Made by a program: the position numbers and the translations under genes. A DNA stretch of 64,000 nt from Pythium myriotylum. Its lineage: Eukaryota > Oomycota > Peronosporomycetes > Pythiales > Pythiaceae. The stretch spans positions 682,001 through 746,000 of the forward strand of contig JALJCQ010000018.1 of assembly GCA_023091665.1 (NCBI GenBank), read 5' to 3'. Under the pieces are notes generated by a model, which was not told the DNA's origin, did no database searches, and was given only the letters and a program-made list of their open reading frames with translations. Below, piece by piece: positions 11,342 through 31,086 of the stretch. Every line of letters starts with the position of its first letter. Position 1 is the stretch's first letter.

Positions 11342-11362
11342 ATGGAATGCAGTGGACACTAG
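10598..11362 (+). CDS. Unknown Ser-rich/acidic protein, right copy of an inverted pair
   Basis: A 254-residue ORF from the ATG at 10598, identical to the 5744-6502 product over about 237 residues. The C-terminus then differs (SSSRRLRCSWMECSGH here). Features match the other copy: a possible ubiquitin-like N-terminal fold over residues 21-75, Ser/Thr-rich middle, acidic run at about 165-180, and basic SLKRKRD patch near residue 213. The two divergent tails suggest that one or both copies lost the original 3' end when duplicated. A splice donor-like gtgtcttcc follows CGCATG near 11304, so the native gene may have a further exon. Function unknown. Confidence 0.6.
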   Translation: MPLITQVASSDSSLPAVSSRNVRCLIVGEDLDFGLGSFALAVDEDMTIHQLQQHVLQHIPSNSQERIGSEVQLFKGFDLYTNDSTTTPTKPKRRLSLASASPIDELLHSLTPEKTANKYFQRKYAMRKRASLGEYLPRGRKCESSRIDVLVSVPKFDLSEDIAEMEREEESEAEMEFDFGFDDASETASFASMSNGGTRSTSSSLKRKRDPVVEEALLKGELFVPAKWQRATCGRMVSSSSRRLRCSWMECSGH

Positions 11363-13709: not shown

Positions 13710-13847
13710 ACAGGACTCCCCTTATGAACTTAACTGTAATCCATAGAATCCATAGAGCTTTCGTTTGCAAGCATGTTGATAGTATCAAGTTCAGGTTGTG
13801 GCGTATCGCGAACTTTACCGGGGCTCTAACTACTTCTTTCGGCCAAA

Positions 13848-14780
13848 TCATTTCGGGTGCACGTAGGCATCAAGCGTGATCGGGAGTGATGCGTTGCAGG
13901 GAACAAACGCAGAGCTCTTGGTGGCTTCCGCGCAATCGATAGGCTTGAACGGCGCCGTCGCGTTGGAGATCTGCGGCTTCTCGAAGCACGATCGAATGGC
14001 TGAGAAGCGGTTCGTACCGTCACCGTTCGAGCACAGCACTTGGACCTTCTTGGGGTACAACGCTTTGACGGCTGCGACCGTTGTCTTCTTGGAAGTCAAA
14101 GCCCAGCGATTGATCTTGTTCGTGGCCGCATCCAGCTTGGCTGCGACGTTGAGCGTAGCCTCGAAGTAGTTGACGGCGGCCTTCTCCCAGTCGTCGCCGA
14201 ACGCGTTGTAACAGATCCCGTGCTTCTGGAATTCGTGGTTGTAGATCTCACAGAGCGTGTCGTACGCGTTGCTTTGCGTCGGGTCGACCCACTTGCACGC
14301 CATCTCCTCGAGCAGCTTTGGCTGGTTCTTGGCAAAATTGGCGGCGTGGTACGGCTTGTTGGCCAGCGTGTCGGTGACGTTGCAGCAGCCAGCGTAGCCG
14401 TCGTTGTAGTTGGGCCAGAGCCCGTGGATCGTGAGCTCGCTCTTAACGACCTCGGGCTTGCACGTGATACCGTTCGGATATGGGTTGACGTTCTGGTGTG
14501 AGATGGTCGAGTCGACACCACGGAGCAGGTCACGACAGAACTGCGGCACAAAGAGCTGCTCGAGAAGCAGGTAGTCGTAGTCACCGGGGCGCTGTTTCTT
14601 GGCAAGACACGTAGGATCGTTTGTTAGGCAAGTGGGCTTGGCCTTGGAATTGACACAGATGTCAACACATTGCTCCTTGGGGGGTGTTGGGATCCAACCG
14701 CCGAGGTAGTCGATGGCAGCAACGGGCTGAGTGGCGGCAGCGAGCGCGAGAGCAGCGGCGGAGGCGATTGAAGCGAGCAT
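13848..14780 (-). CDS. Secreted ribonuclease T2
   Basis: A 310-residue protein starting at the ATG at 14780, with a clear signal peptide (Ala-rich hydrophobic core, probable cleavage near residue 22, VAA|ID). Both conserved catalytic segments of the RNase T2 family are present: LTIHGLWPNYNDG with His119, and HEFQKHGIC with Glu183, Lys187 and His188. The family normally has EW before the lysine; here it is EF. At least twelve cysteines suit a disulphide-bonded extracellular enzyme. T2 enzymes cleave single-stranded RNA through a 2',3'-cyclic phosphate. In a filamentous oomycete this would act outside the cell or in vacuoles, for nutrient scavenging or at the host interface (inference). There are no introns, and it is convergent with the protease gene 138 bp away. 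Confidence 0.92.
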   Translation of the reverse strand: MLASIASAAALALAAATQPVAAIDYLGGWIPTPPKEQCVDICVNSKAKPTCLTNDPTCLAKKQRPGDYDYLLLEQLFVPQFCRDLLRGVDSTISHQNVNPYPNGITCKPEVVKSELTIHGLWPNYNDGYAGCCNVTDTLANKPYHAANFAKNQPKLLEEMACKWVDPTQSNAYDTLCEIYNHEFQKHGICYNAFGDDWEKAAVNYFEATLNVAAKLDAATNKINRWALTSKKTTVAAVKALYPKKVQVLCSNGDGTNRFSAIRSCFEKPQISNATAPFKPIDCAEATKSSAFVPCNASLPITLDAYVHPK

Positions 14781-15375
14781 TGCCGGGGACTCGGTGGGTT
14801 TGAGAATGAAAGCGAAGGAGGAACTCTCTCGAACGAAGTCTCTCGGCCTTGCTGAAGATGAGACCTTGAAGACTGGGACAGTAGTTGTCGCGTCGCTCGT
14901 GAGTAATCTCTGTTTTGTTGGGTCCCGAGACCCTGACTAACGGAGCTCGTCAACAAATCTGCCACCAGCTGGGGCTTGCGTCAACCCAGTTCCCTCGCCA
15001 GACGCCCGATCAATGGGTGCGGCGGGTGTGCATTCAGAGACGCTCGACACGACGACGCAATCTCTGGCCGATGGAGACGCCAGGGTGACAGGAGCTGACA
15101 GATGAGTCAACGGGAGTTGACCTATTGATGCCTATCATGCATGGGGACGGCCATCCATGGCAGCACTGACCAAGGGAATGCCTGCCTTTCGGATTCAGAC
15201 ACGCGAGCGGCCACTGCGACACGTTGACGGCGTTGTGGTGCGTGGCAGCCTCCACCCAACGCGCTGCCCCAGATGGCCGTGTGAAGCCCAACCATCAGAC
15301 ATCTGCGGGAAGAATGGCAGAATGGCCTGGCTGCGTCGTGGTGGTGATACCACAAACGCGTTGATTAAAACCCAC

Positions 15376-15441
15376 GATCCTTGAAGTCTCGTTGCCGATT
15401 GGAGGCGATGATCTCCAATCGGCAACGAGACTTCAAGGATC
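15376..15441. repeat. Perfect 29-bp inverted repeat (hairpin) with 8-base loop
   Basis: Arm 1 is 15376-15404 and arm 2 is 15413-15441. They are exact reverse complements, separated by gcgatgat. After one mismatch the pairing continues outward through ttaaaaccca and tgggcttaaaa, giving an imperfect arm of about 40 bp. It lies between the RNase T2 promoter and the first small-peptide gene. Confidence 0.9.
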
Positions 15442-15476
15442 ATGGGCTTAAAAATTTGATTGGAACGAAAGAATGT

Positions 15477-15480
<4 letters not shown>

Positions 15481-15534
<54 letters not shown>
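15481..15534. repeat. (AG)27 microsatellite followed by G-rich run
   Basis: Twenty-seven uninterrupted AG dinucleotides run directly into a stretch of G with few interruptions, up to about 15551. Such a purine tract can form triplex or slipped structures and is prone to length change. Confidence 0.9.
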
Positions 15535-15540
<6 letters not shown>

Positions 15541-15679
15541 AGGGAGGGGGGAGTCTTCTTGTGTGATTGTTCAGATGAGTGCGCGACGTCACATCGATGT
15601 ATTTTTGTAAGATAGGAGGTAAGTTCATGAACTGAGCGAGTCTTCGTGATTTCCCGCCGAGCACTGTCGGACGCGATCT

Positions 15680-15841
15680 TCAGAACCATTCAGGGATGAT
15701 CGGGCCGACGTTCTGGAGCTCTTCCTCCCAGCTCAAAAACTTTTTGAGCGACGGGAAAACCGCCTCGAGGAAGCCGACAATCACGACGATAACTTCGGCC
15801 TCGCGCTTGACGGGGATTGGCATGGTCTTCGCATCGAACAT
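15680..15841 (-). CDS. Small peptide family, member 1 (53 aa)
   Basis: The ATG at 15841 has an in-frame TAA twelve codons upstream, so the ORF cannot be longer. The 53-residue product contains GFLEAVFPSLKKFLSWEEEL followed by NVGPIIPEWF at the C-terminus. This pattern recurs in the peptides at 17451-17618 and 18225-18386 and in their mirror copies: a hydrophobic helix ending in EAxFPSxK, then LSWEDEL or a variant, then GPI before a short tail. The peptide has no signal sequence and no Cys pairs, and is acidic and probably alpha-helical. Similarity holds along the whole length despite divergent DNA, which supports real coding. It lies outside the inverted arms and is single copy. Function unknown. 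Confidence 0.65.
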   Translation of the reverse strand: MFDAKTMPIPVKREAEVIVVIVGFLEAVFPSLKKFLSWEEELQNVGPIIPEWF

Positions 15842-16220
15842 AGCGCAGGCTGGAATAAGCTCGAAGGGACGTAGTTACTTGGAAGAGAGTTGGCGAATGA
15901 CGTGAAGCATGGACGGCTTTCACCTCGAGTCTTGACGCATTGTCGATCTGGCCGCGCGATCAGCGGGGAAGATGGTGAGGACAATGTCCCGTGTCATCAA
16001 CCTCGAGGACATGTAACGGCAGCGGCGACCGAGGATGATGCGACGGCTGACGCGGCGACGCACGCAAGGACAAACGAGAGGGCTCGAAGGTCACAACGCC
16101 ATCTTGGCCGTTTCATCGGAGCCCAAGCCATTGGATTGAATGGGATCACCCTGGTCTTGAAGAGGATTGCACAGACCTCGTCGAATATCGAAGATTATTC
16201 ACTTCAGATTTCGGTTTTTC

Positions 16221-16301
16221 CGGATCTACTTTGTCGAGTGTCCCTCCCTGCTTCTACGCTGGGACGAAGAGTTTAAAACGCATTGTGCTTGGCCATCGTG
16301 A
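16221..16301 (+). pseudogene. Decayed member of the small peptide family (left)
   Basis: The DNA aligns with the gene at 18225-18386: ggatctact, gagtgt, ccctcc and ctgggac.aagagttta occur in the same order with small deletions. The readable part includes RWDEEFKT, which corresponds to SWDQEFKR of the intact gene, but the upstream coding part and the GPI tail are lost. I see a disrupted frame and no start. Confidence 0.5.
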
Positions 16302-16400
16302 AGTTTGCATACCTCTCGTCTCCATACTCTAGGAACGTAACTATAATAATTTAGCAGCCACAATTAAAGACTAGACTGGCCTTCACCACTTCCTCCACGA
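16263..16400 (+). repeat. Direct repeat flanking inverted duplication 2, left copy
   Basis: This stretch resembles 28084-28235 in the same orientation. Shared blocks are agagttnaaaacgc, agtttg.ata followed by ctc.tctcca, aatttag followed by aattaa, and a final cactt..c..cacga. Identity is moderate with indels. The inverted duplication lies between the two copies. Confidence 0.5.
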
Positions 16401-17450
16401 CGTGGGGCTCGATAGGCTCCATCACGTGGGGCCAACAGCACGCCAGCATGTCTCTTCTCGGATAGAACTTCTGAAAAGACAAAGTTGTTGTTATTGAGGT
16501 CTACTGGTCGAAATAAATATCCAATTCGCCCTGAAGCGTTGGGTCCGTAGCGGCAAATTGTCATTCACGTTGGGAGGAAGAGCTAGCAAATCGCCTCGTC
16601 AATGATGACTAGACACGCTGCGCTTGAGCGTACGCGAATGCAATTGGAGAGCACTTCCCAGCGAGGGAGTTGGTTGATGCTGAGAATGTGATCCCTCCAA
16701 ATTGTGCGATCTCATCTTTGGCATTGTAGCCAATCGTAGAAATGATTTTTATCCTTTTCCATCCAATGATGGAATGCGAAGTCAATCCTCAAATCTGCTT
16801 AACTCAACTCTTGCCCGAGAAGAAAACTCAAGTCTCCGTGGCTGCTAGGTCGGCGAACGCCTGTGGCTCTAGAGAGCAAGGTTCCGAGCATCAGTTTCGT
16901 CGCAGCCTGCAACTTCCTTCTCAAGTACCAATCCAACAGCAAGCACGATTCGAGGGTTACCCGCTCCCACGCACTGCCATCGTCACGAAGCCAAATAGTA
17001 GTATCTAAAAATCCATTTCCAGCTTGATTGAGATCGCCTTCCCATCGACCAGGATTTTTTTCAGCTAAAGACGATCTCGTGCTGAGCGCAAAAGGAAGCA
17101 CAGACCAAGCAGGACAAACGGGATTCTCATTGTATTTACTTCCGTGCAATGATGGCAAAAGAGGGTAGAGTATTAGGAAAAGACTTCACCTGCATGATCA
17201 TCGTACGATCACTAATGACCAAAGAATTTTCTCTCAAGACAATCCATCTTGTTCAATTCTCTTCAGACCATGTTGATCTAGCTGAAATGTTTTCCGTTGC
17301 AACACAATCGTGACAAGCGATCCCATCAGCTGCCTTACTTTGTTTAGAGGTGGAAGCTCTGCCTGACCACAGTGATTGATGCGACAAAAATTGCGGAAAG
17401 CTTTGTAGTATTGTATTTTATTGTACGTCCCGTAACTTGGGATAACTCGC

Positions 17451-17618
17451 TCAGCACAGCTCCGGAGCAATCGGCCCGAGATCCGACAGCTCGTCCTCCC
17501 AGCTAAGGGAACTCTTGAATGACGGGAACGCAGCTTCGACAAAGCCGATGATCGATTCGTAGATGTCGCCCTCTGGCTTGGACACGGGTCGAGGGAGAAG
17601 AGTGGCTTCGGCCATCAT
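17451..17618 (-). CDS. Small peptide family, member 2 (55 aa), left copy
   Basis: The ORF begins with tandem ATGs at 17618 and 17615 and encodes 55 residues. After a Pro-rich lead (LLPRPVSKPEGDIYES) come IIGFVEAAFPSFKSSLSWED and then ELSDLGPIAPELC. It aligns end to end with members 1 and 3. There is no signal peptide, and a single Cys sits at the extreme C-terminus. It is divergent from member 3 across a 606-bp region. An identical gene lies at 26930-27097 in the other arm. Function unknown; confidence rests on paralogue conservation with shared start and stop positions. Confidence 0.7.
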   Translation of the reverse strand: MMAEATLLPRPVSKPEGDIYESIIGFVEAAFPSFKSSLSWEDELSDLGPIAPELC

Positions 17619-18224
17619 GCTGGGCGTGTGGGCTGGTCTAGAGGGAGGCTCGGTGTCGAGCGAGCAGAGAAAATTGCAGAATGAAGTGTCTGGGAACTAA
17701 CCACGAGCGACTTCACTAACTCGCGCAAGGAATCACTTGAGCTCACGTCCCCTCTCTCTCGTTCTCTCGAGAGCGACCACAAGCGCGAGATTCCTTCTCT
17801 GGAAAGTTGGCTGCATATCACACGAGATACGCACTCGCGACGAAGGAGACGTGCGATTGCATTCGCAATGGCTGCAGTGGTGGAAAGAAATCTCACAGTG
17901 ACGTGGCGACTTGAATAGTTGCGAGTCCTGGCGATTGGAAGAAATGGTGAGGTCGCTGCTTGGATTGGAGGAAGTGGTGAGAGATCCCACTCTCTGAAAA
18001 ATACACGGGCACAGAAACTGGCCACGAAAGAAGACCATCAAACCACAGTATCCGCTAAAGATGAAACTTTCCACTCGGAGGCCTCGTTCTCACGACAAAC
18101 AGCCACAGACACAAGTGTGGCGTTCGTGCGGTATTCGATGCTCTCACTCCGTTCGGGTCATTCTCCAATTCCATCCGAGCCACGTGTAAGCAAGCCACAG
18201 CGACTTCATCTGTTCTCCAAAGAA
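17619..18224. promoter_or_regulatory. Candidate bidirectional promoter of peptide genes 2 and 3 (left copy)
   Basis: The 606 bp between divergent peptide genes appear unchanged in the right arm (26324-26929). The minus frame at 17615-18025 and the plus frame from 17919 are open but encode low-complexity Ser/Arg/Thr sequence without domains, so they are probably chance. A GA/CT-rich stretch (ctctctctcgttctctcgagagc) lies around 17753-17775. Confidence 0.45.
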
Positions 18225-18386
18225 ATGATCAGCACCGCCCCAACGAACACCATCACAGAGGCCGACGTGTACGAGGCCATCCTGGATCTACTGGAGTGTG
18301 CGTTCCCTCCACTCAAGTCGTATCTGAGTTGGGACCAAGAGTTTAAGCGTGTCGGACCCCTCATCGATCTGCCTGAGCTGTGCTGA
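18225..18386 (+). CDS. Small peptide family, member 3 (53 aa), left copy
   Basis: The ATG at 18225 gives a 53-residue peptide with ADVYEAILDLLECAFPPLK, then SYLSWDQEFKRVGPLIDLPE and terminal LC. The frame is open further upstream, but the start is placed here because it gives the same length and layout as members 1 and 2. It is acidic, has no signal peptide, and ends in PELC like member 2. An identical gene is at 26162-26323. Function unknown. Confidence 0.68.
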   Translation: MISTAPTNTITEADVYEAILDLLECAFPPLKSYLSWDQEFKRVGPLIDLPELC

Positions 18387-18429
18387 GTGTAGCACAGAAT
18401 GATGACCCCACGCGAAGCAATATCGAAAC

Positions 18430-18711
18430 CGAAACGCCACCAACTGGCGGAAACCCCTTCAAGAACACTCGATCACTGCGTGGCTTCGGTTTAGCGTTGG
18501 CAAACCACCATGTGAGGCCTTCATTCACCCTCCGACCATGACACAACGTGCATCCATTGCACCAATCAGGCGTCTAAACCAGAAGTCCGTTGTTCTAGAT
18601 TTATGATTATACTTCAAGGTCGATGCGCCCATTCGCGCGTCTCAAACGTATACTTGGATAAAAGGAAAAGTAACTTCTCACCAGAGAAGACCTTGGCTTT
18701 GTCGCTTGACT
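18430..18711. other. Unique left spacer between outer arm and secreted-protein gene
   Basis: About 280 bp with no match on the right side and no supported gene. It includes the 3' flank of the gene at 18712-20523. Confidence 0.45.
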
Positions 18712-20523
18712 TTAAACACGACGGCGAAGACCATGATCCTTGACGCTTGTAGGGTTGATTTGGACATTGAGCACGAGCTCGCCGTCCTTGTTGTCTGGCA
18801 CCCAGGCGAGCAGCGAGCCACCTCCAGTGCCAGAGATACCAAGAGCACCAGCGCGCCAGCGGTCCAAGTACAGCGTCTTGCCCTGGAACTCGGAGAGTGG
18901 CTTGCTCCATTCAACAGTCTGGCCCTTCTTCACCTTGACGTCGTACTTCTTCTTGCCACCGGAAGCAACATTCACAGTCACATCTGTGTCGTCGACGCTC
19001 TTGAAAGTGATCTTCAGCTGGCCATTGCCCTTCTTCTTCCACGTACCCGTGCTGTCGCGGAATGCCTTCTGGATCGCGTTGAGTCCAACAGCCTGATCGG
19101 CCGGACCATCATCGATCTGACCCACGTACGCCGTTGGTCCACAGATGGGCTGCAGGAACTCGGAAGCCATGGCCGCAATGCCCGTCGGGTCAATCAGCGC
19201 GATGGCGTCAAGACCCATGTTGGCGACGGCCAGTCCGAAGTCCGCGACAGACTGCGGCTTGTCGCCCTTGTTGGACGCGCCGACAATGCTGTCGATCATG
19301 ACGTGGACCGACTTGATGATCTGGTCACGACTGAGGAACTTGGAGGTGGCAGCTAGCTCACGACCGCCTGGACGCTTGACGGCTGAAGCACAGCTCGACG
19401 CGGCTCTCGGAAGATCCTGCAGCACGAAGTTGGAGTTGAGCACGGCCGTCTTGAGCGCGCCGACAGGCGTCGCTGGGTCCTTGTTCTTCATGTCCTGCAC
19501 CATCGCGGTGACGCGGTTGACGACCGAGTTGATATCGGCACCACATGATGAGCCAGATACGAGCGTCATCAGCGAGGACGTGTCACCCTTGGAGAGTGCG
19601 CCGATGGAGGCTGCAGCCTTTGGCACAGCCGACTTGGTGACGTTGAGGAAAGTCTTGAAGTCGAGCAGGTTGAGTCCGCCGATGCGAGCGTCGACGACCG
19701 AGTTGACGACATTCTGTACGACGCCCGTGACCTCTTTGGCCTTGTTCAGACCTGACGGGATGGGCACACCAATGCAGGTGGCGATGGCTGCTGGGAGATC
19801 GTAGATGACGAAGTCGCTGTTGTTGATGGTAGCGAGCACTTTGTCCTTCGTCGTCACCGTGGCCTTGGCTTGGTCAACGATGGATATGATCTGTTTGGTG
19901 ACGGAGAAGAGCTGCTGCCCACAACGCACGCCGACTTGAACACCCTTTGCAGCTTTTGTGAGCGTGCCGAAGACGCCACCCGTCGCGGCATTGAGTGCCA
20001 CGTTCACAACGGACTCGACCTTCTTCAGAATTTCTTTGGTGCAGTCCTTGTTTTGTGGGATACATTCCATACCGCATTGCACAGGGTACTCGATGGGACA
20101 TTGCGCCCAGCATGTCTTGATATTGTCGTAGCTGTAGCCGACACCGCACTGCTTATTTGACGAGATATAGGTTTTGCGGTAGCAGGCCGAGTCGCTGGGC
20201 TTGCCGACAATGGGGCCGACCCAGTTGGGCTCTGCTGGCGGAAGAGCAGGCGCAGGGGCCGGAGCAGGCGCGGGAGGAGGAGCAGCCGATGAAGGCTCGG
20301 GGGCAGCTGATGATGCCGTCGGAGCCTCCGATGCCTCTGGTTCTGAGGGAGGGACGACTGTTCCAGGCTCGTACTTTGTCGCCGATGGCGCTGGTGCTTT
20401 GGAAGACGTCGGGCTCGGGACACCAGGTAGCAAAGGCTTGGGCGTCGATGCGCTCGGCGCAGGCGATGCGGCCGATGAGAGTGCTACAAGCAGCGCGGAG
20501 AGCACGAGATGCACGCGCACCAT
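18712..20523 (-). CDS. Secreted protein with Pro/Ser/Ala-rich stalk, left copy
   Basis: A 603-residue single-exon protein from the ATG at 20523. The signal peptide covers about 19 residues (hydrophobic core LVLSALLVALSSAAS). Residues of about 20-100 form a low-complexity Pro/Ala/Ser/Glu stalk suited to O-glycosylation. A Cys-rich module follows, from SACYRKTYISSNKQCGVGY to CGMECIPQNKDCT, with eight Cys. A long helical Ala/Val/Ser-rich region of about 300 residues contains further paired Cys. The C-terminal 100 residues look like a beta domain (KKYDVKVKKGQTVEW, then GGGSLLAWVPDNKDGELVL). No enzyme motif and no C-terminal GPI hydrophobic tail are visible. It is probably a cell-wall or apoplastic protein of oomycetes (inference). 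The right copy at 22921 shares an 880-bp identical core. Confidence 0.75.
   Translation of the reverse strand: MVRVHLVLSALLVALSSAASPAPSASTPKPLLPGVPSPTSSKAPAPSATKYEPGTVVPPSEPEASEAPTASSAAPEPSSAAPPPAPAPAPAPALPPAEPNWVGPIVGKPSDSACYRKTYISSNKQCGVGYSYDNIKTCWAQCPIEYPVQCGMECIPQNKDCTKEILKKVESVVNVALNAATGGVFGTLTKAAKGVQVGVRCGQQLFSVTKQIISIVDQAKATVTTKDKVLATINNSDFVIYDLPAAIATCIGVPIPSGLNKAKEVTGVVQNVVNSVVDARIGGLNLLDFKTFLNVTKSAVPKAAASIGALSKGDTSSLMTLVSGSSCGADINSVVNRVTAMVQDMKNKDPATPVGALKTAVLNSNFVLQDLPRAASSCASAVKRPGGRELAATSKFLSRDQIIKSVHVMIDSIVGASNKGDKPQSVADFGLAVANMGLDAIALIDPTGIAAMASEFLQPICGPTAYVGQIDDGPADQAVGLNAIQKAFRDSTGTWKKKGNGQLKITFKSVDDTDVTVNVASGGKKKYDVKVKKGQTVEWSKPLSEFQGKTLYLDRWRAGALGISGTGGGSLLAWVPDNKDGELVLNVQINPTSVKDHGLRRRV
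18987..19866 (-). repeat. 880-bp essentially identical tract between the two secreted-protein genes (left)
   Basis: It pairs with 23773-24652 (position sum 43639). All three overlapping reading frames I could compare are identical in this tract, whereas the flanking parts of the genes differ in sequence and length. The edges are abrupt: aaggccacggtg at one end and the GACGAC codons before divergent gtcacggtc or gtgactgtg at the other. Confidence 0.8.
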
Positions 20524-22920
20524 GTTCCTGAGTGGCCTCGTCAGTCCAGTTGAAAAATGAGAACTGTTGTTTTGAGCTCACACAGCAAGGCGGAGGTAGC
20601 CATCGGCAGGGTGATCACGTGGACAGGCTCCGTGCATCGAATTCCAGCTGGAAGACCCCTCTATTTGGAGAGACCGTCGAAAACCAACAGGCGGATACGG
20701 CGAAGGTCACATGATCGGCAGGGACAGCGGTGAGGTCTGACTCGATGGATAAGCGGATGCAGTTTCCATCCAACTGAAGGCTTTCGAAGGGTTCACTCGA
20801 TGGAACGGATGGCTCGGGCTCTCGCGCTCATTACAGCTGTTCCGAACTTGAGGTGGAAAGTTCGAGACGGACGTTCTGACAGCGTGGCGAAGAAGACAAC
20901 TTGGCCTGGTGGAAAGCGACTGACTCATCCTCGGATTCACCACAGCAGGCATGTCTCCAGCAAGGTTGGATATTCGAGATCAATATTAAAGCGGATCAGA
21001 ATGAAAGTAATCAAAGCGTATATTATCAATTTATGGCCAGCAACTGACCAGGTCTAAGTATTCGACTTCAGTAGACCCAGCAAGCTGTCGAGATAGGAAG
21101 GATTCGACCGCGCACCATCGCACCATCCGCAACCCCCTGGTCGTAAGACTGTTGATCTGTTTTCGCATTTCTCTACGACGTTGTGAGAGAGAGAGACGTT
21201 CGTTAGCCGACGAGTATCTTCACGCCGCTGTGCTAACTGATTGTTTCTGTTCAACACTTCGAGTCTACTTCCAGTATGTGAGCCTTCAATTCCACTTGCA
21301 AGAGTGTCCTTCCAAGACACAACTGGCCGCACAGACGGGATGATACTCTGCAGTAACTTCGGTCACGTAATCAAAATCATGTCAGGACACAACTGGTCGC
21401 AACGACAGATTGATGTTAGAACAAAGTCACACTTCGAGTGCAAACCCGGATCCTTCATTACTGAGAGGAATTGAACTTCGAGTAAGGAGGACTTTCGACG
21501 AAAAGAAGCTTTCTCCCGTACGCAAGAACAACTGTTAGCAACAGTCACAACTAAGAGTAAGCCACGACACAAGACCCTGCTCTTAATTAGCAAGCCGCAT
21601 CAAAGCTCCTGACGAACACCACAGTTGTTGATGCGGCGAAGTGAGTAACCGTGGTATCAGAGCTTTTCTTGATTCAGCTTGTGTTAGACCGGAGGCGTTT
21701 AGAGTCTTCAATGTCTACGATTGCAAATGGACTCAGCTCATCAGATATGACGCCAACCATGCGACTGCTTACCATAATCGCATTGTACCATCCGGTCTCG
21801 CTGTGAACTCAACTGCGCGATTTCTTGTGATCGCATTTGTACACGCCGCTGCGAAGTCCATGTTAGGACCGGCACCATTTGAGCTTGAATACGTTATTAT
21901 ACAGAGGTTCGGGCCTCTATCAGCCTTGACGCTCAAAAGAAACGTCGCTTACATGATCGTAACCCCGAACAAGCCAACTAATGCCTAGGTCTTAGAGACT
22001 CGTGCGTCCAACCACGTCAAGATTTGGTTGCTGCGATGCAAGACCCGTCGTCTTCCTCTACCGGAGATGTTCGGATGATTATGGCAATAGAAGCAAGATC
22101 TCCACGAAGTGCTTTCGTTTTTGACAATGATCTCGCATTCTCGGTTGAAGGACGTGATCAAGACCGGCTTAACCTTTACGGCCTGCTCATATTTGCCTTG
22201 GTGGAGCCAGCCAAGTGCGTTCTGGTGTGGACCATGGGCTCGACGCACAATGCGACGACGGACTCATCAAGTATCCTTTCTCAGTGATCCCACGTGGATA
22301 ACGGACTCATTCGCAGTGATGGGTTTGCGAGAAACCGGTGGCCTCCGAATCCTCCACCTCAGAAGTGCGATCTCACAAGGTTATCATTGTTCATCCCCTT
22401 GCCTTTGCCGAGGTGTCTATCGCGACGTTGTCCTGCGTCGTCTTTCGTCCTGACCGCAGTCTCCCTGAGACGGCCTCTCCGGTCGTATCACGACTCGAGT
22501 ACTGTATACAGTACACACACTGCCTTCGGAACGTCCAGGGTGGTGCGGAGGGTGTTCATGGGCGAGTGCTTCTAATTTATTTGTGGCGGGGGCTCGCACT
22601 CACCCATCTTGATCATCGAGTCGGAATAGCATCCTTCATTTTATCGTCGGCTGGCGCCTTTCTCCAGACCCGTATGGTTGAGAAAGGTTTGGAGACTCCC
22701 ATTGGTCGTGACTCCGATGGTGAGACTGTCAAGAACGGCTGTTCCCAACGGACCAGGAAATCTCTTCCAGCTGGCACTTGCTTCTAGCCATGAAATGACG
22801 CAAGCTCCACGACACATGTCATCGTGTGACCCATTATGGCTGCTTTCATCCATTGGGACGAAGGGCTCAGCAGTGGATGACAAGTGAATCCTTCGTCATT
22901 TTTGATCTTGTCTCGAGACC
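20524..22920. other. Spacer at the centre of inverted duplication 2, with retroelement-like relic
   Basis: About 2.4 kb of unique DNA lies between the two divergent secreted-protein genes. No intact gene is supported; open frames up to about 150 codons lack domains. The motif tggtatcagagc at 21652-21663 is the classic Ty1/copia primer-binding site complementary to initiator tRNA-Met, so a decayed LTR element is possible around 21050-22000. The two ends should hold the promoters of the secreted-protein genes. Confidence 0.45.
21652..21663 (+). mobile_element. Copia-type primer-binding-site motif (possible LTR relic)
   Basis: The 12 bases tggtatcagagc match the primer-binding site commonly found just inside the 5' LTR of Ty1/copia elements. 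I could not delimit an LTR or find gag/pol coding sequence, so this is a motif-level call only. Confidence 0.3.
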
Positions 22921-24927
22921 ATGAGGATCATCCGCTTGCATCTCGTGCTGGCAGTGGCGCTTGCAGTGCTAGCGTCGGCGCAGGATGCCAGTCCTGCCGC
23001 GCAAGGCCCTGGAGCGCCGACACCATCCGAGGGCGAGTTTCAGCCTGGAACGGTTGTTCCTCCTGCCGGACTGGACGAACCAGGGTCGGCTCCAGCAGCA
23101 TCTTCGGCAGCTCCAGTGCCTTCATCTGCTGCTCCGAAGCCTTCATCTGCAGCCCCGAAACCTTCCTCTGCTGCCCCGAAACCTTCATCTCCGGCCCCGA
23201 AGCCTTCATCCGGAGCTCCCAAACCTTCATCCGGAGCTCCCAAACCTTCGTCTGGAGCTCCGAAGCCTTCGTCTGCCGCTCCCAAGCCCTCATCTGCAGC
23301 ACCGAAGCCTTCATCTGAAGCTCCTAAACCTTCGTCAGCCGCACCGAAGCCGTCCTCGGCGGCTCCTGCTCCTCCACCTGCCCCTGCACCGGCCCCTCCA
23401 CCAGCCGACCCCAACTGGGTCGGCCCCATCGTCGGCAAGCCCAGCGACTCGGCCTGCTACCGCAAAACCTACATCCCGTCCAACAGACAGTGTGGTGCTG
23501 GCTACAATTTTGACAATATTGCAACGTGTTGGGCTCAGTGTCCCATTGAGTACCCTGTGCAATGCGGTATGGAATGTATCCCGCAAAACAAGGATTGTAC
23601 AAAAGCAATCCTTAAGAAGGTGGCGTCCGTTGTGAATGTGGCACTCAATGCCGCGACGGGTGGCGTCTTCGGCACTCTCACAAAGGCCGCCAAGGGCATC
23701 CAGGTGGGCGTGCGCTGTGGACAGCAGCTCTTCTCCGTCACCAAACAGATCGCCTCTATCATCGACCAGGCGAAGGCCACGGTGACGACGAAGGACAAAG
23801 TGCTCGCTACCATCAACAACAGCGACTTCGTCATCTACGATCTCCCAGCAGCCATCGCCACCTGCATTGGTGTGCCCATCCCGTCAGGTCTGAACAAGGC
23901 CAAAGAGGTCACTGGCGTCGTACAGAATGTCGTCAACTCGGTCGTCGACGCTCGCATCGGCGGACTCAACCTGCTCGACTTCAAGACTTTCCTCAACGTC
24001 ACCAAGTCGGCTGTGCCAAAGGCTGCAGCCTCCATCGGCGCACTCTCCAAGGGTGACACGTCCTCGCTGATGACGCTCGTATCTGGCTCATCATGTGGTG
24101 CCGATATCAACTCGGTCGTCAACCGCGTCACCGCGATGGTGCAGGACATGAAGAACAAGGACCCAGCGACGCCTGTCGGCGCGCTCAAGACGGCCGTGCT
24201 CAACTCCAACTTCGTGCTGCAGGATCTTCCGAGAGCCGCGTCGAGCTGTGCTTCAGCCGTCAAGCGTCCAGGCGGTCGTGAGCTAGCTGCCACCTCCAAG
24301 TTCCTCAGTCGTGACCAGATCATCAAGTCGGTCCACGTCATGATCGACAGCATTGTCGGCGCGTCCAACAAGGGCGACAAGCCGCAGTCTGTCGCGGACT
24401 TCGGACTGGCCGTCGCCAACATGGGTCTTGACGCCATCGCGCTGATTGACCCGACGGGCATTGCGGCCATGGCTTCCGAGTTCCTGCAGCCCATCTGTGG
24501 ACCAACGGCGTACGTGGGTCAGATCGATGATGGTCCGGCCGATCAGGCTGTTGGACTCAACGCGATCCAGAAGGCATTCCGCGACAGCACGGGTACGTGG
24601 AAGAAGAAGGGCAATGGCCAGCTGAAGATCACTTTCAAGAGCGTCGACGACAAGGACGTCACGGTCAATGTGATGTCCGGTGGCTCGAAGAAGTACAATG
24701 TGAAGGTGAAGAAGGGCCAGACTGTTGAATGGAGCAAGCCACTCTCCGAGTTCCAGGGCAAGACGCTGTACTTGGACCGCTGGCGCGCTGGTATTCTCGG
24801 ATTCTCTGGTACGGGTGGCGGCTCGTTGCTCGCCTGGGTGCCAGACAACAAGGACGGCGAGCTCGTGCTAAACGTCCAGATCAACCCCACCAGTCTCAAG
24901 AATCATGGCCGTCGTCTCGATGGATAG
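22921..24927 (+). CDS. Secreted protein with expanded Pro/Ser repeat stalk, right copy
   Basis: A 668-residue single-exon paralogue of 18712-20523, with the ATG at 22921. The signal peptide is LHLVLAVALAVLASAQ-like, with likely cleavage after residue 20. The stalk is longer than in the left copy because it contains about twelve copies of a heptad PKPSSAA (A replaced by G, P or E in some). The Cys-rich module (SACYRKTYIPSNRQCGAGY to CIPQNKDCT), the helical core and the C-terminal beta domain follow in the same order. The core is identical to the left copy over residues of about 285-577. The C-terminal domain differs at several positions (for example KDVTVNVMSGGSKKYNVKV). It is probably an extracellular wall-associated protein; function unknown. 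Confidence 0.75.
   Translation: MRIIRLHLVLAVALAVLASAQDASPAAQGPGAPTPSEGEFQPGTVVPPAGLDEPGSAPAASSAAPVPSSAAPKPSSAAPKPSSAAPKPSSPAPKPSSGAPKPSSGAPKPSSGAPKPSSAAPKPSSAAPKPSSEAPKPSSAAPKPSSAAPAPPPAPAPAPPPADPNWVGPIVGKPSDSACYRKTYIPSNRQCGAGYNFDNIATCWAQCPIEYPVQCGMECIPQNKDCTKAILKKVASVVNVALNAATGGVFGTLTKAAKGIQVGVRCGQQLFSVTKQIASIIDQAKATVTTKDKVLATINNSDFVIYDLPAAIATCIGVPIPSGLNKAKEVTGVVQNVVNSVVDARIGGLNLLDFKTFLNVTKSAVPKAAASIGALSKGDTSSLMTLVSGSSCGADINSVVNRVTAMVQDMKNKDPATPVGALKTAVLNSNFVLQDLPRAASSCASAVKRPGGRELAATSKFLSRDQIIKSVHVMIDSIVGASNKGDKPQSVADFGLAVANMGLDAIALIDPTGIAAMASEFLQPICGPTAYVGQIDDGPADQAVGLNAIQKAFRDSTGTWKKKGNGQLKITFKSVDDKDVTVNVMSGGSKKYNVKVKKGQTVEWSKPLSEFQGKTLYLDRWRAGILGFSGTGGGSLLAWVPDNKDGELVLNVQINPTSLKNHGRRLDG
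23773..24652 (+). repeat. 880-bp essentially identical tract between the two secreted-protein genes (right)
   Basis: Partner of 18987-19866 in inverted orientation. No difference was found in the parts I compared base by base, and translated frames on both strands agree. Confidence 0.8.
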
Positions 24928-26118
24928 AACAACTTCCGTTCTGGATGGTATGAGTAGATTACGATCTACTATTAGTGTAACCGACATTGTTAGTGTACAA
25001 AGTCTTACCCGTCCATCACTTCGTTGTATCCCTCTCTATCTATCAAGTGTCGCCTCAATGAGCTGGAATTGTTGCCCACAGCTCTGGTAAGACTCAAGGA
25101 GGGAAACAGACCCAATATCATCTCATACACGATCGTCGCGGGTGACGATGCCTGATGGGCTCGAACGATGTTTGTTCTCCATCGGCACTTGCTAGTGAGA
25201 TCAATTGGTGCAGTCATAAATATATGTGGACGCAAACGCGAAGCCATGCCGCAGTGATCGTCGGTTCTTGAAAAGGTTCCCAATTTTGCGTGAAGCCAGT
25301 TGCGAAGTAGAAATATGGCCTCCACTTGGCACGTATCACAGTCGATCGCATCACTATTATTTTTTTTCTCCTCACGAATCCAGCTCCTAATAACACGGAG
25401 AACACCCAATAATACTGATTCAGGACTCCTATTGAGAGATGTGAGAGTTGATTCTTCGCACCCATTGCGAACGTGATCGCTACTTTATTGTCCCTTGCTG
25501 CTGGATCCCAAGGCGAGAATCCAGCGAGAGAAGAAATTTCAGAATGTTTTTCATCCACTTCAGTTTGCTTCAATTAGCAATAGCAAGTTCGACTTACTCA
25601 TCCCAATGCCCCAAACAACACCCAACACCCCAATACACAGATCCGCTCGCTCGCCATGCACCAAGCTGCCCCTCGTCCGCGCTAGGTGGTTTACAGTCTA
25701 TGCGGTCTGTGTGGGTGGTAGACGCCACTGAACTGGGTACAAGCTTCGAAAAATAACTGCTTCATCTAGAATACAACGCTCAAAGCCGCTGCGTTTTCTA
25801 CTGTCTGTTCTTCACCACTTCACCGTGAAGTTAGCCTCGTGGTCGGATCTCTCTGAATACCATGAAAGTGAAGTTACCACGATAGGGACCGTAGACAGGA
25901 CCTCAATGTATTGGCGTCGACACATAAAGGGAACAAGCACAGCAAAGCATGCTACAAATCGTGGACAGCAGAAGGGATACGAGTTCTCAATACGCTTCAT
26001 GCGGGCTCCTTGATTCGAGCAAGAATAAAAGCTCATAGAACGAAGGCAAGTCGCATTAGTGCTGTCGATATGTCTCTTTCTAGCTAATATACAACACGTG
26101 GTAGCAGGCTTAAGTTGT
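24928..26118. other. Unique right spacer, no gene seen
   Basis: About 1.2 kb between the secreted-protein gene and the outer right arm, compared with about 0.28 kb on the left side. The extra DNA means an insertion here or a deletion on the left. It is AT-richer and holds only short open frames without recognisable features. Confidence 0.45.
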
Positions 26119-26161
26119 GTTTCGATATTGCTTCGCGTGGGGTCATCATTCTGTGTTGCAC

Positions 26162-26323
26162 TCAGCACAGCTCAGGCAGATCGATGAGGGGTCCGACACG
26201 CTTAAACTCTTGGTCCCAACTCAGATACGACTTGAGTGGAGGGAACGCACACTCCAGTAGATCCAGGATGGCCTCGTACACGTCGGCCTCTGTGATGGTG
26301 TTCGTTGGGGCGGTGCTGATCAT
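26162..26323 (-). CDS. Small peptide family, member 3 (53 aa), right copy
   Basis: Mirror image of 18225-18386, with an identical 53-residue product from the ATG at 26323 to a stop at 26162. It ends about 43 bp from the inner edge of the arm, so its 3' flank becomes unique almost at once and may use a different terminator from the left copy. Function unknown. Confidence 0.68.
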   Translation of the reverse strand: MISTAPTNTITEADVYEAILDLLECAFPPLKSYLSWDQEFKRVGPLIDLPELC

Positions 26324-26929
26324 TTCTTTGGAGAACAGATGAAGTCGCTGTGGCTTGCTTACACGTGGCTCGGATGGAATTGGAGAATGACCCGAACGGA
26401 GTGAGAGCATCGAATACCGCACGAACGCCACACTTGTGTCTGTGGCTGTTTGTCGTGAGAACGAGGCCTCCGAGTGGAAAGTTTCATCTTTAGCGGATAC
26501 TGTGGTTTGATGGTCTTCTTTCGTGGCCAGTTTCTGTGCCCGTGTATTTTTCAGAGAGTGGGATCTCTCACCACTTCCTCCAATCCAAGCAGCGACCTCA
26601 CCATTTCTTCCAATCGCCAGGACTCGCAACTATTCAAGTCGCCACGTCACTGTGAGATTTCTTTCCACCACTGCAGCCATTGCGAATGCAATCGCACGTC
26701 TCCTTCGTCGCGAGTGCGTATCTCGTGTGATATGCAGCCAACTTTCCAGAGAAGGAATCTCGCGCTTGTGGTCGCTCTCGAGAGAACGAGAGAGAGGGGA
26801 CGTGAGCTCAAGTGATTCCTTGCGCGAGTTAGTGAAGTCGCTCGTGGTTAGTTCCCAGACACTTCATTCTGCAATTTTCTCTGCTCGCTCGACACCGAGC
26901 CTCCCTCTAGACCAGCCCACACGCCCAGC
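26324..26929. promoter_or_regulatory. Candidate bidirectional promoter of peptide genes 3 and 2 (right copy)
   Basis: Mirror copy of 17619-18224, with no visible change in the translated frames that cover it. Confidence 0.45.
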
Positions 26930-27097
26930 ATGATGGCCGAAGCCACTCTTCTCCCTCGACCCGTGTCCAAGCCAGAGGGCGACATCTACGAATCGATCAT
27001 CGGCTTTGTCGAAGCTGCGTTCCCGTCATTCAAGAGTTCCCTTAGCTGGGAGGACGAGCTGTCGGATCTCGGGCCGATTGCTCCGGAGCTGTGCTGA
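26930..27097 (+). CDS. Small peptide family, member 2 (55 aa), right copy
   Basis: Identical to the left-arm gene at 17451-17618: tandem ATG at 26930 and 26933, 55 residues, ending in GPIAPELC. It is divergent from the right copy of member 3. The following 3' flank gacgtacaataaaatacaat contains an aataaa-like signal shared by both copies. Confidence 0.7.
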   Translation: MMAEATLLPRPVSKPEGDIYESIIGFVEAAFPSFKSSLSWEDELSDLGPIAPELC

Positions 27098-28075
27098 GCG
27101 AGTTATCCCAAGTTACGGGACGTACAATAAAATACAATACTACAAAGCTTTCCGCAATTTTTGTCGCATCAATCACTGTGGTCAGGCAGAGCTTCCACCT
27201 CTAAACAAAGTAAGGCAGCTGATGGGATCGCTTGTCACGATTGTGTTGCAACGGAAAACATTTCAGCTAGATCAACATGGTCTGAAGAGAATTGAACAAG
27301 ATGGATTGTCTTGAGAGAAAATTCTTTGGTCATTAGTGATCGTACGATGATCATGCAGGTGAAGTCTTTTCCTAAGACTCTACCCTCTTTTGCCATCATT
27401 GCACGGAAGTAAATACAATGAGAATCCCGTTTGTCCTGCTTGGTCTGTGCTTCCTTTTGCGCTCAGCACGAGATCGTCTTTTGCTGAAAAAAATCCTGAT
27501 CGATGGGAAGGCGATCTCAATCAAGCTGGAAATGGATTTTTAGATACTACTATTTGGCTTCGTGACGATGGCAGTGCGTGGGAGCGGGTAACCCTCGAAT
27601 CGTGCTTGCTGTTGGATTGGTACTTGAGAAGGAAGTTGCAGACTGCGACGAAACTGATGCTCGGAACCTCGCTCTCTAGAGCCACGAGGGCTCGCCGACC
27701 TAGCAGCCACGGAGGCTTGAGTTTTCTTCTCGGGCAAGAGTTGAGTTAAGCAGATTTGAGGATTGAATTCAGGGCAGCTTCACTCGTTCCATCATTGGAG
27801 AAATCATTTCTACGATTGGCTACGATGCCGGAGATGAGATCCGACAATCTCATTCTCGGCGTCACGTCATCGTCGAAACTCAACAAGATTCTCCACTGCA
27901 GCGTGTCTGCTCATAACTGGTGGTAATGGTGATGCAGGTTGAGTCAATTGATTTCAACTATTGAATCCTTATAGCTGCTCATAACTGATCAAGCGATTCG
28001 CTGGCTCTTCCTCCCAACGTTAATGCAGATATACCATTGCTGGCGATCGATCCAAAGCACCTGCCGAGCGAATCT

Positions 28076-28130
28076 TTCGGCTTCCGAGGAGTTCAAAACG
28101 CGTTGGACCTACCAACGTTCCCTGACTGTA
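28076..28130 (+). pseudogene. Decayed member of the small peptide family (right)
   Basis: The segment gaggagttcaaaacgcgttg gacc corresponds to gagtttaagcgtgtcggacc of peptide gene 3 (18225-18386), and one frame reads SEEFKTRW at this point. The N-terminal coding half and the stop context are gone. It is in the same orientation as the left relic at 16221. Confidence 0.4.
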
Positions 28131-28235
28131 GTTTGTATATCCCTCATCTCCACTACGAATGTACCCCACAAAAATTTAGTCGGCTATAATTAAGGCTGGG
28201 ACTCGCCAGGCCTTTGCCACTTTCCCCACGATGCG
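28084..28235 (+). repeat. Direct repeat flanking inverted duplication 2, right copy
   Basis: Moderately similar, in direct orientation, to 16263-16400. It ends just upstream of the ATG of the LRR-WW gene (28245) and so probably contributes to that gene's promoter. Confidence 0.5.
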
Positions 28236-28244
28236 TGAGTGGTT

Positions 28245-31086
28245 ATGTCCCGCCACAACAGCATTAAGGGCGCGACGGCTGCACTTCCACACGTTGCATT
28301 GCCGCTTTTGTCAGATGACCGACGATCTCGGCAGGAATGGATCCAGAATCAACTCGAAGACCGGAGGCGGCGACGCGACCGAGAGCAATTGGAGAAGCAG
28401 TCTGAGCTGGAGGAACACCAGGAGCGGTCATGGAGTCCCTTTGTCCGTGAGGCGGCTCGCTCTCACGAGCTGAACATTGCCTGGAAGCAGGCAAAGGGCT
28501 TCTTCTCCTGGGATCGCGTGCTGGCCTTGGACGAGTTAGAGGGGCTACGTGTCACAGGCTTTAGCTTTCAGTCCCTTCCAAGCGAACTGGCATCTTCTCT
28601 TCATTCGCTAACGGTTCTCTCATTGATCGCGTGCCAACTTGAGAGTCTTCCCGAGAACGTAAGTGAGTTTGTAGAAAATTCTATTGACTTATAGCACTGA
28701 TAAATATTTTTCTGGGCAACAGATCGGTGAGTTAGCGTCGCTAACGGAGCTGGACCTGACAAAGAACAACCTACGCCGTCTCCCTGAATCACTAAGCTCA
28801 CTTGTGTCTCTGCGACAACTGAATCTATCGAGCAATGTTTTGGAAGAGTTGCCCAATGACTTCGGGAAATTGGTTCTTCTGGATAAACTCTGGGTTGAAA
28901 ACAACCGACTAACCACGCTCCCACCATCGATCGCGTTAAGCCGAGCTCACAGTGCGAATTTCAGCAACAACCGCCTCCAAAGTCTACCTGAAGCAATCGG
29001 TGACATGCCCAACCTCGTTCACCTTAATGTCAATTTGAACCAGCTCATCGAGTTTCCCGACGCGCTCACGAGGCTGACACAGCTTCAGTCTCTTCATGCG
29101 TCACGCAACAAACTCGTAACACTGCCTCGTAATGTCGGCAACCTCGCAAGCCTAAAAGATCTTCGACTCGACTGGAACCAGATCACTGAGCTGCCGTTCT
29201 CGTTTCGTCTGCTTCGTTCGCTGGAGATCCTCTGCATGGAGAGGAATCCACTCAAGCTACCCCCACTTGAGTATATTTCGAAAGGCGTACCAGCCACGAT
29301 GCTCTACATCGAGCGATCACTGGAAGAGTTCGTGCACAAGGCGCGGCGCCAAGCTGTCGAGAAACTACAGGACGTGCTGGCGTTCGCTATGAAATTTGTG
29401 GACGAGCAACACAAGAAGACTGGAGGCGAAACGTCGGATGAGCTTGCTGAGGGCGACCTCGAGGCTCTCGACTCGCTCTTCGAGTCGCGGGTCGAACGCG
29501 CAGCTGGACAAAATGAGACGCTGCCGTTCTTTGCGGTCGTGTGGGATAGCTTCTTCGACGTGATACTGCCGATCATCGACCGTAGATCCAACGGATTTTT
29601 CCAGCTCCAGGAGTTCTGCTCGCGAGATGAGCTTGAAGATGCGCTGCAGCACTACAACGACTTCTTCGGCGCAGCGTCGCGCAAAGACAGCGCAGTGAGG
29701 TTTCGCCGCTGTGCGTGCATTGACGAGCTTGAGTGGAAGCACAACGGCGTGAAGAAGCGCAAGGTTTGTGTTCCCGGGCAGGCGCCGTACATGTGCGAGC
29801 GCGCTGCGCTACTCGTGCGCATGACCATGATGACCCAGGAGGAGGCAAAGGATCAGCTTGCAAGCACCTATCTCCGGCGCAAGATCGAACGGCTCGTGGC
29901 TAAGACCAAGCGTAAATGTGTCGACTTCATCAACTCTGAGGACGGTGTCGACCATTTTGAAAAGCTCGCGCTGGCAATGGCTAAGCGCCACTGTCTGCGG
30001 CGCAAGCGTGTCAAGAAACTGAGGCTTCAGCACGCCAAACAAAAGTTAGGGCTCGAGAAGAAAATACAGAAGTTGCGGGCAAAGATGGAGGCTTTTCGAA
30101 AAGTACGTGATGCACGGCGCAAAGGTTTGGAAGAGAAGCTGGGTGGTCTTAAGAAAGAGCAGGCGGCTCTGGGAGAGGACGTAAAGAACGCCAAGAAGGC
30201 CAAAAGACTGGGAGAGAAGATCCGCGAGATTGAGGACGAGATAGAGAAGGAGCCGATCGAGGACAAGAAGATCCTGGAGGTGGAATTGGCGATGGAGGCC
30301 ATCGAAAGTGCAGGTGAGAAGGCGAACGTGGCATTTGAGAAGGCAAAAGCCGCCGAAATGAACGACGGAGACCTGGAATCAGCGGACGAAGGAGAAGAGG
30401 AGGGAAGCGAAGAAGAGGCAGAGAGTGAGGAAGACAGTGGAGACGATGGCGATAGCGAGATCGACGATGAAGAAGACAACGCGACGAAAACCGACGAGGA
30501 CTCTGTATCCAACCACCCCGAGACCCTGAGCGACGATGGCGGCGAAGCGCGTAGCTTCTTTAACATCGAGATGCCGGATCTTCACGTGGAACCCTACCGT
30601 CGCGTTGCGAGCCGCGCCATCGAGAACTCGCTGGGCGACGACCGCGTCGTGAACGAGGAGGAGTTGCTTGTGCTCTATCAGCAGCATCTGCGTGATGCGT
30701 ATGTAGCTGAGAAATGTGCGCTCGTCGAGAAGAAGGCGACCTACGAGTTTTTACAGATGCGGGTTGTGCTCAAGCGGTGGATGGGCCATGGCACGCGCGC
30801 TGTCTTCGAGGGTTGGCGCGATGTCGTCAAGGAGAACCGCGCTAACGCTGCTCTCACTAAGAAGAAGCAGGTGAGAAAGCAGCAAATTGAGGCCCAGAAC
30901 AAGGCGCTCGCCGAGGAGCTCGCCCGCGTCGAGGCCAGGAAATGGGTCCACCGCGTCGACATGTACACGGACGCCGTCTACTATGAGCACAGCGAGACTG
31001 GTGAGACGAGTTGGACACCGCCCATTTACTGGGAGGAAGAGCAGCAGCGTCTGGCTGTGCCACCACTCCGGCTACCTCCTTTGTAA
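28245..31086 (+). CDS. Leucine-rich repeat protein with coiled coil and C-terminal WW domain
   Basis: Two exons, 28245-28658 and 28723-31086, with a 64-bp phase-0 intron (AAC|gtaagt...caacag). The product is about 925 residues. The N-terminus is basic and charged. Residues of about 100-330 carry seven or more typical LRRs of the LxxLxLxxNxLxxLP type, such as LTELDLTKNNLRRLPESL, interrupted only by the intron. A helical region with a CERAALLVRM segment, long coiled coils and a strongly acidic stretch (DEGEEEGSEEEAESEEDSGD) follow. Residues of about 885-912 form a WW domain (WVHRVDMYTDAVYYEHSETG, ending SWTPP). LRR plus WW plus coiled coil suggests a scaffold. Related architectures occur in ciliary and cytoskeletal proteins, but that role is inference. 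Confidence 0.85.

What the first reader, a model, noticed from the sequence alone, without database searches (positions are those of the whole stretch)
15680..28130. A family of tiny peptide genes (53-55 aa) concentrated in one locus
Five intact ORFs (15680-15841 -, 17451-17618 -, 18225-18386 +, 26162-26323 -, 26930-27097 +) and two relics (16221-16301, 28076-28130) encode one fold-like pattern: a helix ending EAxFPSxK, then LSWEDEL or a variant, then GPI and a short tail. Three distinct sequences share start, stop and length although their DNA has diverged, which argues for selection on the peptide. They have no signal peptide and no disulphide pattern, and two of the three types end in PELC. 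I know of no named family with these features. ORFs this short are usually dropped by gene finders.
Basis: partly seen in the sequence, partly recalled or inferred. Interest (0 to 1): 0.87.

Follow-up and report, generated by a model that had tools for sequence, protein, structure and literature searches.

The report
Overlooked small-protein family of oomycetes
Five very short genes in this stretch of a water-mould-like genome belong to a family of tiny, mostly acidic proteins that also occurs in Phytophthora, Globisporangium and Pythium, where its members are listed almost only as uncharacterised; what it does is still unknown.

Summary
The five ORFs exist exactly as stated, but they are three independent sequences: two occur twice, in a 1.65-kb inverted repeat whose arms are identical over 1,217 bp. 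They are very probably real genes. Protein-level conservation exceeds DNA-level conservation, codon usage is gene-like, and each has an initiator-type element 59-67 nt before its ATG; that element occurs six times (four independent) in 112.6 kb, always before a family ATG. The family is not confined to this locus: a second cluster lies 50 kb away and a third on contig C15. A profile search found homologues in Globisporangium ultimum, Pythium insidiosum and several Phytophthora species, unnamed there apart from one implausible enzyme label. I distinguish type I (67-78 aa in named species; one clear copy here) and a shorter, multiplied type II (47-55 aa; the window genes). No significant Pfam, NCBIfam, PDB or Foldseek match was found. 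My best mechanism, an intracellular helical docking microprotein, is inference only; expression was not testable. Of the two relics one is moderately supported, the other not.

The parts
15680..15841 (-). Type II small-protein gene C, 53 aa
   Evidence: ORF; homology; coding signal
15885..15900 (-). Initiator-type element of C (TCATTC core), 59 nt before the ATG
   Evidence: published INR/FPR definition PMC3599244; 3 mismatches to the 16-nt consensus, a value that 22.6% of random positions reach
16219..16276 (+). Possible A-like relic with deletions, head-to-head with C
   Evidence: local DNA alignment to A, (moderate); within noise at protein level
17451..17618 (-). Type II small-protein gene B, 55 aa
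   Evidence: ORF; homology; coding signal
17669..17684 (-). Perfect INR+FPR core promoter match of B, 66 nt before the ATG
   Evidence: one of only two strict matches in the 64 kb, the other being B2
18158..18173 (+). Initiator-type element of A, 67 nt before the ATG, downstream of the 82-aa ATG
   Evidence: 2 mismatches to the 16-nt consensus
18225..18386 (+). Type II small-protein gene A, 53 aa, head-to-head with B
   Evidence: ORF; homology; coding signal
16778..18429 (+). Left arm of the inverted repeat carrying B and A
   Evidence: arm differences
26119..27770 (-). Right arm of the inverted repeat carrying A2 and B2
   Evidence: arm differences
26162..26323 (-). A2, identical copy of A
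26375..26390 (-). Initiator-type element of A2
26864..26879 (+). Perfect INR+FPR core promoter match of B2
26930..27097 (+). B2, identical copy of B

Best explanation
The ORFs are genuine protein-coding genes of an undescribed oomycete protein family. An apparently ancestral type I protein (67-78 aa in named species; one clear copy in this genome, on contig C15; uncharacterised homologues in Phytophthora, Globisporangium and Pythium) gave rise to a shorter type II (47-55 aa) that ends two residues after the Pro-Glu motif and multiplied on contig C18 by local duplication, inverted duplication and decay. The window holds three type II genes, two of them twice. Likely mechanism (inferred): the protein works inside the cell as a docking microprotein. 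A helix of about 16 residues, followed by the conserved Trp, Gly-Pro and Pro-Glu segment, binds a groove of a larger partner and modulates it; the diverging N-termini and copies tune partner or stage. Shown: existence, homology, coding signal, promoter-like element, distribution. Inferred: which type is ancestral, transcription, translation, intracellular site, partner binding.
For: Coding: in 6 of 6 pairs of A-D the second codon position is the most conserved and frame +0 scores best of six frames; 5 of 6 pairs exceed all 1,000 column shuffles. Codon usage of C and D beats 109 of 109 intergenic ORFs of 44-80 aa, B 107, A 106. Promoter: TCATTC.[GC]CAA occurs 6 times in 112.6 kb (A, A2, B, B2, C, D; four independent), each 50-67 nt before the family ATG; the published INR+FPR consensus occurs in the window only at the two B copies. 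Homologues: 9 of 111 candidates at E <= 6.1e-3, 7 with species names, all oomycete, 2 metagenomic without name. Reverse search: the G. ultimum protein P0001, as single query, finds K (2.7e-13), B (9.9e-5), D (3.2e-4), C (5.3e-4) and A (0.019). D has a metagenomic homologue of the same 47-aa length, 68% identical end to end. A-D have pI 4.1-4.6. Both AF2 models of B show one helix at about residues 15-30.
Against: No transcript, ribosome or peptide data were available. AF2 confidence is low (mean pLDDT 65.7 and 62.8; not higher with more sequences), so the helix is a weak prediction. No partner is known. The promoter element may be shared by descent, and the pattern TCATTC.[GC]CAA was drawn from the members after the fact; by the published consensus C has 3 mismatches, as 22.6% of random positions and 83 of 306 ATG-ORFs do. 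The codon test used members found by protein similarity, which favours frame +0; pair C-D gave only z 2.5. E and F lack the Gly-Pro part and are basic, pI 10.7 and 9.1; E has no ATG for 143 nt downstream of its initiator-like element. One type I protein, P0001, is not acidic (pI 7.8).
Confidence: 0.55

Rival explanations
1. Host-directed or apoplastic small proteins: type II genes are fast-evolving effector-like proteins released without a signal peptide, expressed in infection stages.
For: INR+FPR promoters are over-represented among infection-related genes in P. infestans (PMC3599244, passages). The cluster sits among genes for secreted-looking proteins (RNase T2, Pro/Ser-rich Cys proteins). 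Copies duplicate and diverge.
Against: No signal-peptide-like start by eye (no predictor was run). Type I homologues are retained across genera, unlike typical effectors. Pfam finds nothing in the peptides.
Confidence: 0.15
2. Structural or assembly subunit of a larger machine (membrane or organelle complex), multiplied by chance.
For: Helices of the five Phytophthora type I proteins and of C are hydrophobic (maximum 19-residue Kyte-Doolittle mean 1.40-1.71, and 1.77 in C), and type I is conserved across genera.
Against: Hydrophobicity is only 0.5-0.8 in A, B, D and P0004; rapid multiplication is unusual for a stoichiometric subunit (general knowledge).
Confidence: 0.14
3. Barstar-like antidotes: acidic small proteins that hold secretory RNase T2 inactive if it leaks into the cytosol.
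For: Two of three clusters lie within about 1 kb of RNase T2 genes: C is 0.9 kb from one, E 0.25 kb from another. A-D have pI 4.1-4.6.
Against: The C15 cluster, which holds the type I gene, has no T2 match on its whole contig at E <= 1e-3. In the 1.5-kb flanks of the T2 genes at C18:762 and 833-835 kb and on C1, C27 and C19 no stretch scores above the range of shuffled sequence. One segmental duplication would explain the linkage; the T2 copies are 77.5-78.7% identical DNA.
Confidence: 0.07
4. Fragments or short exons of a larger protein, not independent genes.
For: H, I and J on C15 run into donor-like GAG|GT sites after the core, so some members may have a further exon.
Against: A-D each have an initiator-type element, then an ATG 50-67 nt on, then 47-55 codons and a stop. 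Homologous proteins in named oomycetes are models of 67-78 aa. No larger homologue was found, but that search only admits proteins of 0.55-1.75 times the query length.
Confidence: 0.06
5. Non-coding or chance ORFs in duplicated DNA.
For: Two of the five are copies in a recent inverted repeat; no expression data.
Against: Homologous proteins in other genera, protein-biased substitution, gene-like codon usage, consistent promoter-element position.
Confidence: 0.03

Closest known systems
Uncharacterised oomycete proteins: Globisporangium ultimum (P0001, P0005), Pythium insidiosum PINS_up000783, Phytophthora nicotianae PPTG_21790, P. infestans GN244_ATG20210, P. fragariae PF007_g12700, and a P. 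cinnamomi protein that its source names methylenetetrahydrofolate dehydrogenase
   Same: Same family by profile E-value (1.4e-11 to 6.1e-3) and the same order of Pro, Trp, Gly-Pro, Pro-Glu; K on C15 is 50-71% identical to them over the matched part
   Different: They are type I, with GDxxLGQ near the N-terminus and 21-27 residues after Pro-Glu; the window genes lack GDxxLGQ and end two residues after Pro-Glu
Metagenomic 47-aa protein P0004
   Same: 68% identical to D over all 47 residues, same length and ends
Barstar (recalled; not fetched or compared)
   Same: Small, acidic, intracellular; here two of three clusters lie beside genes for secretory RNases
   Different: No sequence or fold comparison made; barnase is not RNase T2
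Microproteins in the plant and animal sense (recalled)
   Same: Small proteins thought to act by binding a larger partner
   Different: Classical ones are truncated relatives of the partner's domain; no larger relative was found here, within the length limit

Membership tests
Undescribed oomycete family (type I/II, this report) | Homology to type I proteins of other oomycetes | tested here: met
   Profile A5, which itself contained K; single-sequence reverse search with P0001 finds B, D and C at E <= 5.3e-4 and A at 0.019; with P0007 D 5.1e-4, C 1.3e-3, B 0.78
Undescribed oomycete family (type I/II, this report) | Conserved Pro, Trp, Gly-Pro, Pro | tested here: met
   P32, W40, G48, P49 and P52 invariant in 13 of 13 rows of A7 (A, B, C and the ten proteins). 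In the 20 rows of A6, which add D-F and H-K, only P32 and W40 stay invariant
Undescribed oomycete family (type I/II, this report) | Transcribed and translated | not testable with these tools
   No RNA or peptide data
Any Pfam or NCBIfam family | Significant match to a curated model | tested here: not met
   20 sequences of A6 (several of them pieces): one hit each, E 0.15 (TumE) and 0.088; six longer ORFs: none in Pfam
Crinkler or RXLR effectors | Family N-terminal domain, or signal peptide plus RXLR | tested here: not met
   No Pfam match in the peptides; no signal-peptide-like start by eye, no predictor run
RNase inhibitor (barstar-like) | Binds and inhibits an RNase | not testable with these tools
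   Only genomic proximity in two of three clusters
Known fold in the PDB | Sequence or structure match | tested here: inconclusive
   Best sequence E 0.052 and 0.23; Foldseek 0 matches at E <= 10, but the model is low-confidence

The most novel reading that the evidence does not exclude
An oomycete protein family whose type I member is kept in Phytophthora, Globisporangium and Pythium radiated in this lineage into acidic 47-55 aa proteins that act as cytosolic antidotes to the secretory RNase T2 enzymes beside which two of their three clusters lie: a eukaryotic, barstar-like RNase T2 guard system.
Probability: 0.06. Interest if true: 0.85.

Novelty: new member of a known kind. Interest (0 to 1): 0.5.

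Why it matters
It adds an undescribed, apparently taxon-restricted protein family to a group that includes major plant and animal pathogens. Without a Pfam or NCBIfam model its members stand as hypothetical proteins in other oomycetes, and the 47-55 aa type is easily lost by gene finders. One clear type I copy here (two in G. ultimum) makes a gene-removal test feasible, while the type II clusters show birth, copying and possible decay of tiny genes in one place. The initiator-type element may help to tell short genes from chance ORFs in such genomes, though by the published consensus alone its discrimination is modest.

Tried and rejected
Protein-database search with B alone found nothing, and the 6-row profile A2 none among 20 candidates; only the 10-row profile A5, which included C15 members, reached the homologues. 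My first motif pattern was one base short and found no member; the corrected one gave 17 hits, 8 of them the family on C18, against 9 for the reversed control pattern; the other 9 showed no family context by eye. Viral contigs: 17 pattern stretches, none a relative. Prokaryote contigs: not searched, the alignment was not accepted. Rfam: nothing in 13000-30000. Literature, listings only: no paper with any of six gene identifiers; two unrelated papers with one of four peptide words; titles and abstract starts of 15 of 198, 11 of 11 and 10 of 46 papers on oomycete small ORFs, unannotated or lineage-specific small proteins showed nothing on this family; 12 of 6,186 papers on RNase T2 and oomycetes likewise. 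Candidate G (L075:930-1124) looked like a member by eye and has 2 mismatches to the promoter consensus, but is not among the 30 best profile rows and was dropped. Segments at 28473 and 21350 scored within the range of shuffled sequence. Second exons for H, I and J were looked for and left open. RNase T2 linkage as a general rule was rejected.
Full report
What is there. The five ORFs are present as described. A, B and C share 43-51% protein identity. A/A2 and B/B2 are identical because they lie in the arms of an inverted repeat, 16778-18429 and 26119-27770, 99% over 1652 nt; an alignment of 16700-18430 with the other arm shows no difference between 17173 and 18389, while the arms of the neighbouring Cys-rich gene are only 92.5-94% identical. 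This looks like recent duplication or gene conversion; an assembly effect cannot be excluded. The independent evidence in the window therefore rests on three sequences, not five.

Beyond the window. Searches with B, E, C, K, D and H found a second cluster at C18:758.4-759.7 kb with D (47 aa), E and F, and a third on C15:2166-2169.5 kb with H, I, J and K. A profile of 20 sequences, run over 112.6 kb (window plus five fetched stretches), gives 12 hits of 42.6-82.7 bits, all of them sequences used to build it or their identical copies; the next is 9.8 bits, and the best in four shuffled windows is 10.5. Counts for the whole genome are lower bounds, as the search scores only its best candidates.

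Coding evidence. For the six pairs of A-D over 36 aligned codons, second positions are the most conserved (0.67-0.78), third positions 0.39-0.53; frame +0 scores best of six frames in 6 of 6; 5 of 6 exceed all 1,000 column shuffles, C-D does not (z 2.5). The members were found by protein similarity, so this test is biased in their favour. Codon usage, trained on five large window genes, puts C and D above 109 of 109 intergenic ATG-ORFs of 44-80 aa, B above 107 and A above 106; GC by codon position has the same shape as in the large genes.

Promoter evidence. In P. infestans the core promoter may carry INR (YCAYTYY) and, 2 nt on, FPR (MWTTTNC), most often within 50-100 nt of the start codon; TCATTCT is the most frequent INR, and both motifs were also found in Pythium ultimum (PMC3599244: abstract, section 6 and passages read). 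B has a perfect 16-nt match at -66; the only two strict matches in the window are those of B and B2. A and D have 2 mismatches, at -67 and -50; C has 3, at -59. Of 4,000 random positions 4.0% have 2 or fewer mismatches within 110 nt and 22.6% have 3 or fewer; of 306 window ATG-ORFs of 44-80 aa, the family included, 21 and 83 do. So C alone is not significant by this measure. The shared core TCATTC.[GC]CAA, drawn from the members after the fact, occurs six times in 112.6 kb (A, A2, B, B2, C, D; four independent), each time 50-67 nt before the family ATG, which is the first ATG downstream. It places the start of A at the 53-aa ATG and of D at a 47-aa ATG. The others are weaker: I has 2 mismatches, F, H, J and K 3, E 5.

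Homologues. Profile A5 found 10 proteins at E <= 10 among 111 candidates, 9 of them at E <= 6.1e-3. Eight carry a source name with a species, all oomycetes, counting P. idaei at E 1.7; two are unnamed metagenomic proteins. The eight named ones and P0003 (57 aa) share GDxxLGQ and a GPIIP motif; K belongs with them (70.6% to P. insidiosum, 50-54% to Phytophthora). P0004 is a full-length match to D. Reverse searches with P0007 and P0001 as single queries find K first and then type II genes. The tree is weakly supported (type II against the rest 72/86; D with P0004 89/96), so 'type I ancestral, type II derived' rests mainly on taxonomic spread.

Layout. B(-) and A(+) are head-to-head with 606 bp between their ATGs; F(-) and D(+) are also head-to-head; C(-) faces the possible A-like relic. 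The duplicated unit may have been a divergent pair. Two of three clusters are close to RNase T2 genes, the third is not.

Function. A-D are acidic (pI 4.1-4.6), E and F basic. AF2 with 3 and with 13 sequences gives a helix at about 15-30 and low confidence elsewhere; Foldseek finds nothing. I propose an intracellular docking microprotein, at about one in two; that the genes are real and belong to an oomycete family I hold at above 0.9. No result here shows expression, location or partner.

Noticed in passing
5744-6502(-) and 10598-11362(+): Inverted pair of nearly identical 252/254-aa ORFs; the second scores E 0.01 to the Crinkler N-terminal domain, below Pfam's cut-off.
   Followed up: partly
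18712-20523(-) and 22921-24927(+): Inverted pair of 603/668-aa proteins with a secretory-looking start, a Pro/Ser/Ala-rich region and a Cys-containing block; the 668-aa copy has a 21-nt repeat array; no Pfam family above cut-off for the 603-aa one.
   Followed up: no
13848-14780(-): RNase T2 gene; 19 T2 matches in the genome: 6 on C1, 5 on C18, 7 on C19, 1 on C27.
   Followed up: partly
17009-17065(+) and its mirror near 27518(-): Short segment resembling the helix-FPS part of the peptides, then disrupted; scores within noise.
   Followed up: partly
41460-47765: Three ORFs that look like bZIP proteins by eye.
   Followed up: no
L075:3279-4913: H, I and J on C15 run into GAG|GT donor-like sites after the core, suggesting an intron absent from the window genes.
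   Followed up: partly
P0009 (protein, no window place): A 67-aa P. cinnamomi family member carries the source name methylenetetrahydrofolate dehydrogenase, implausible for its length.
   Followed up: no
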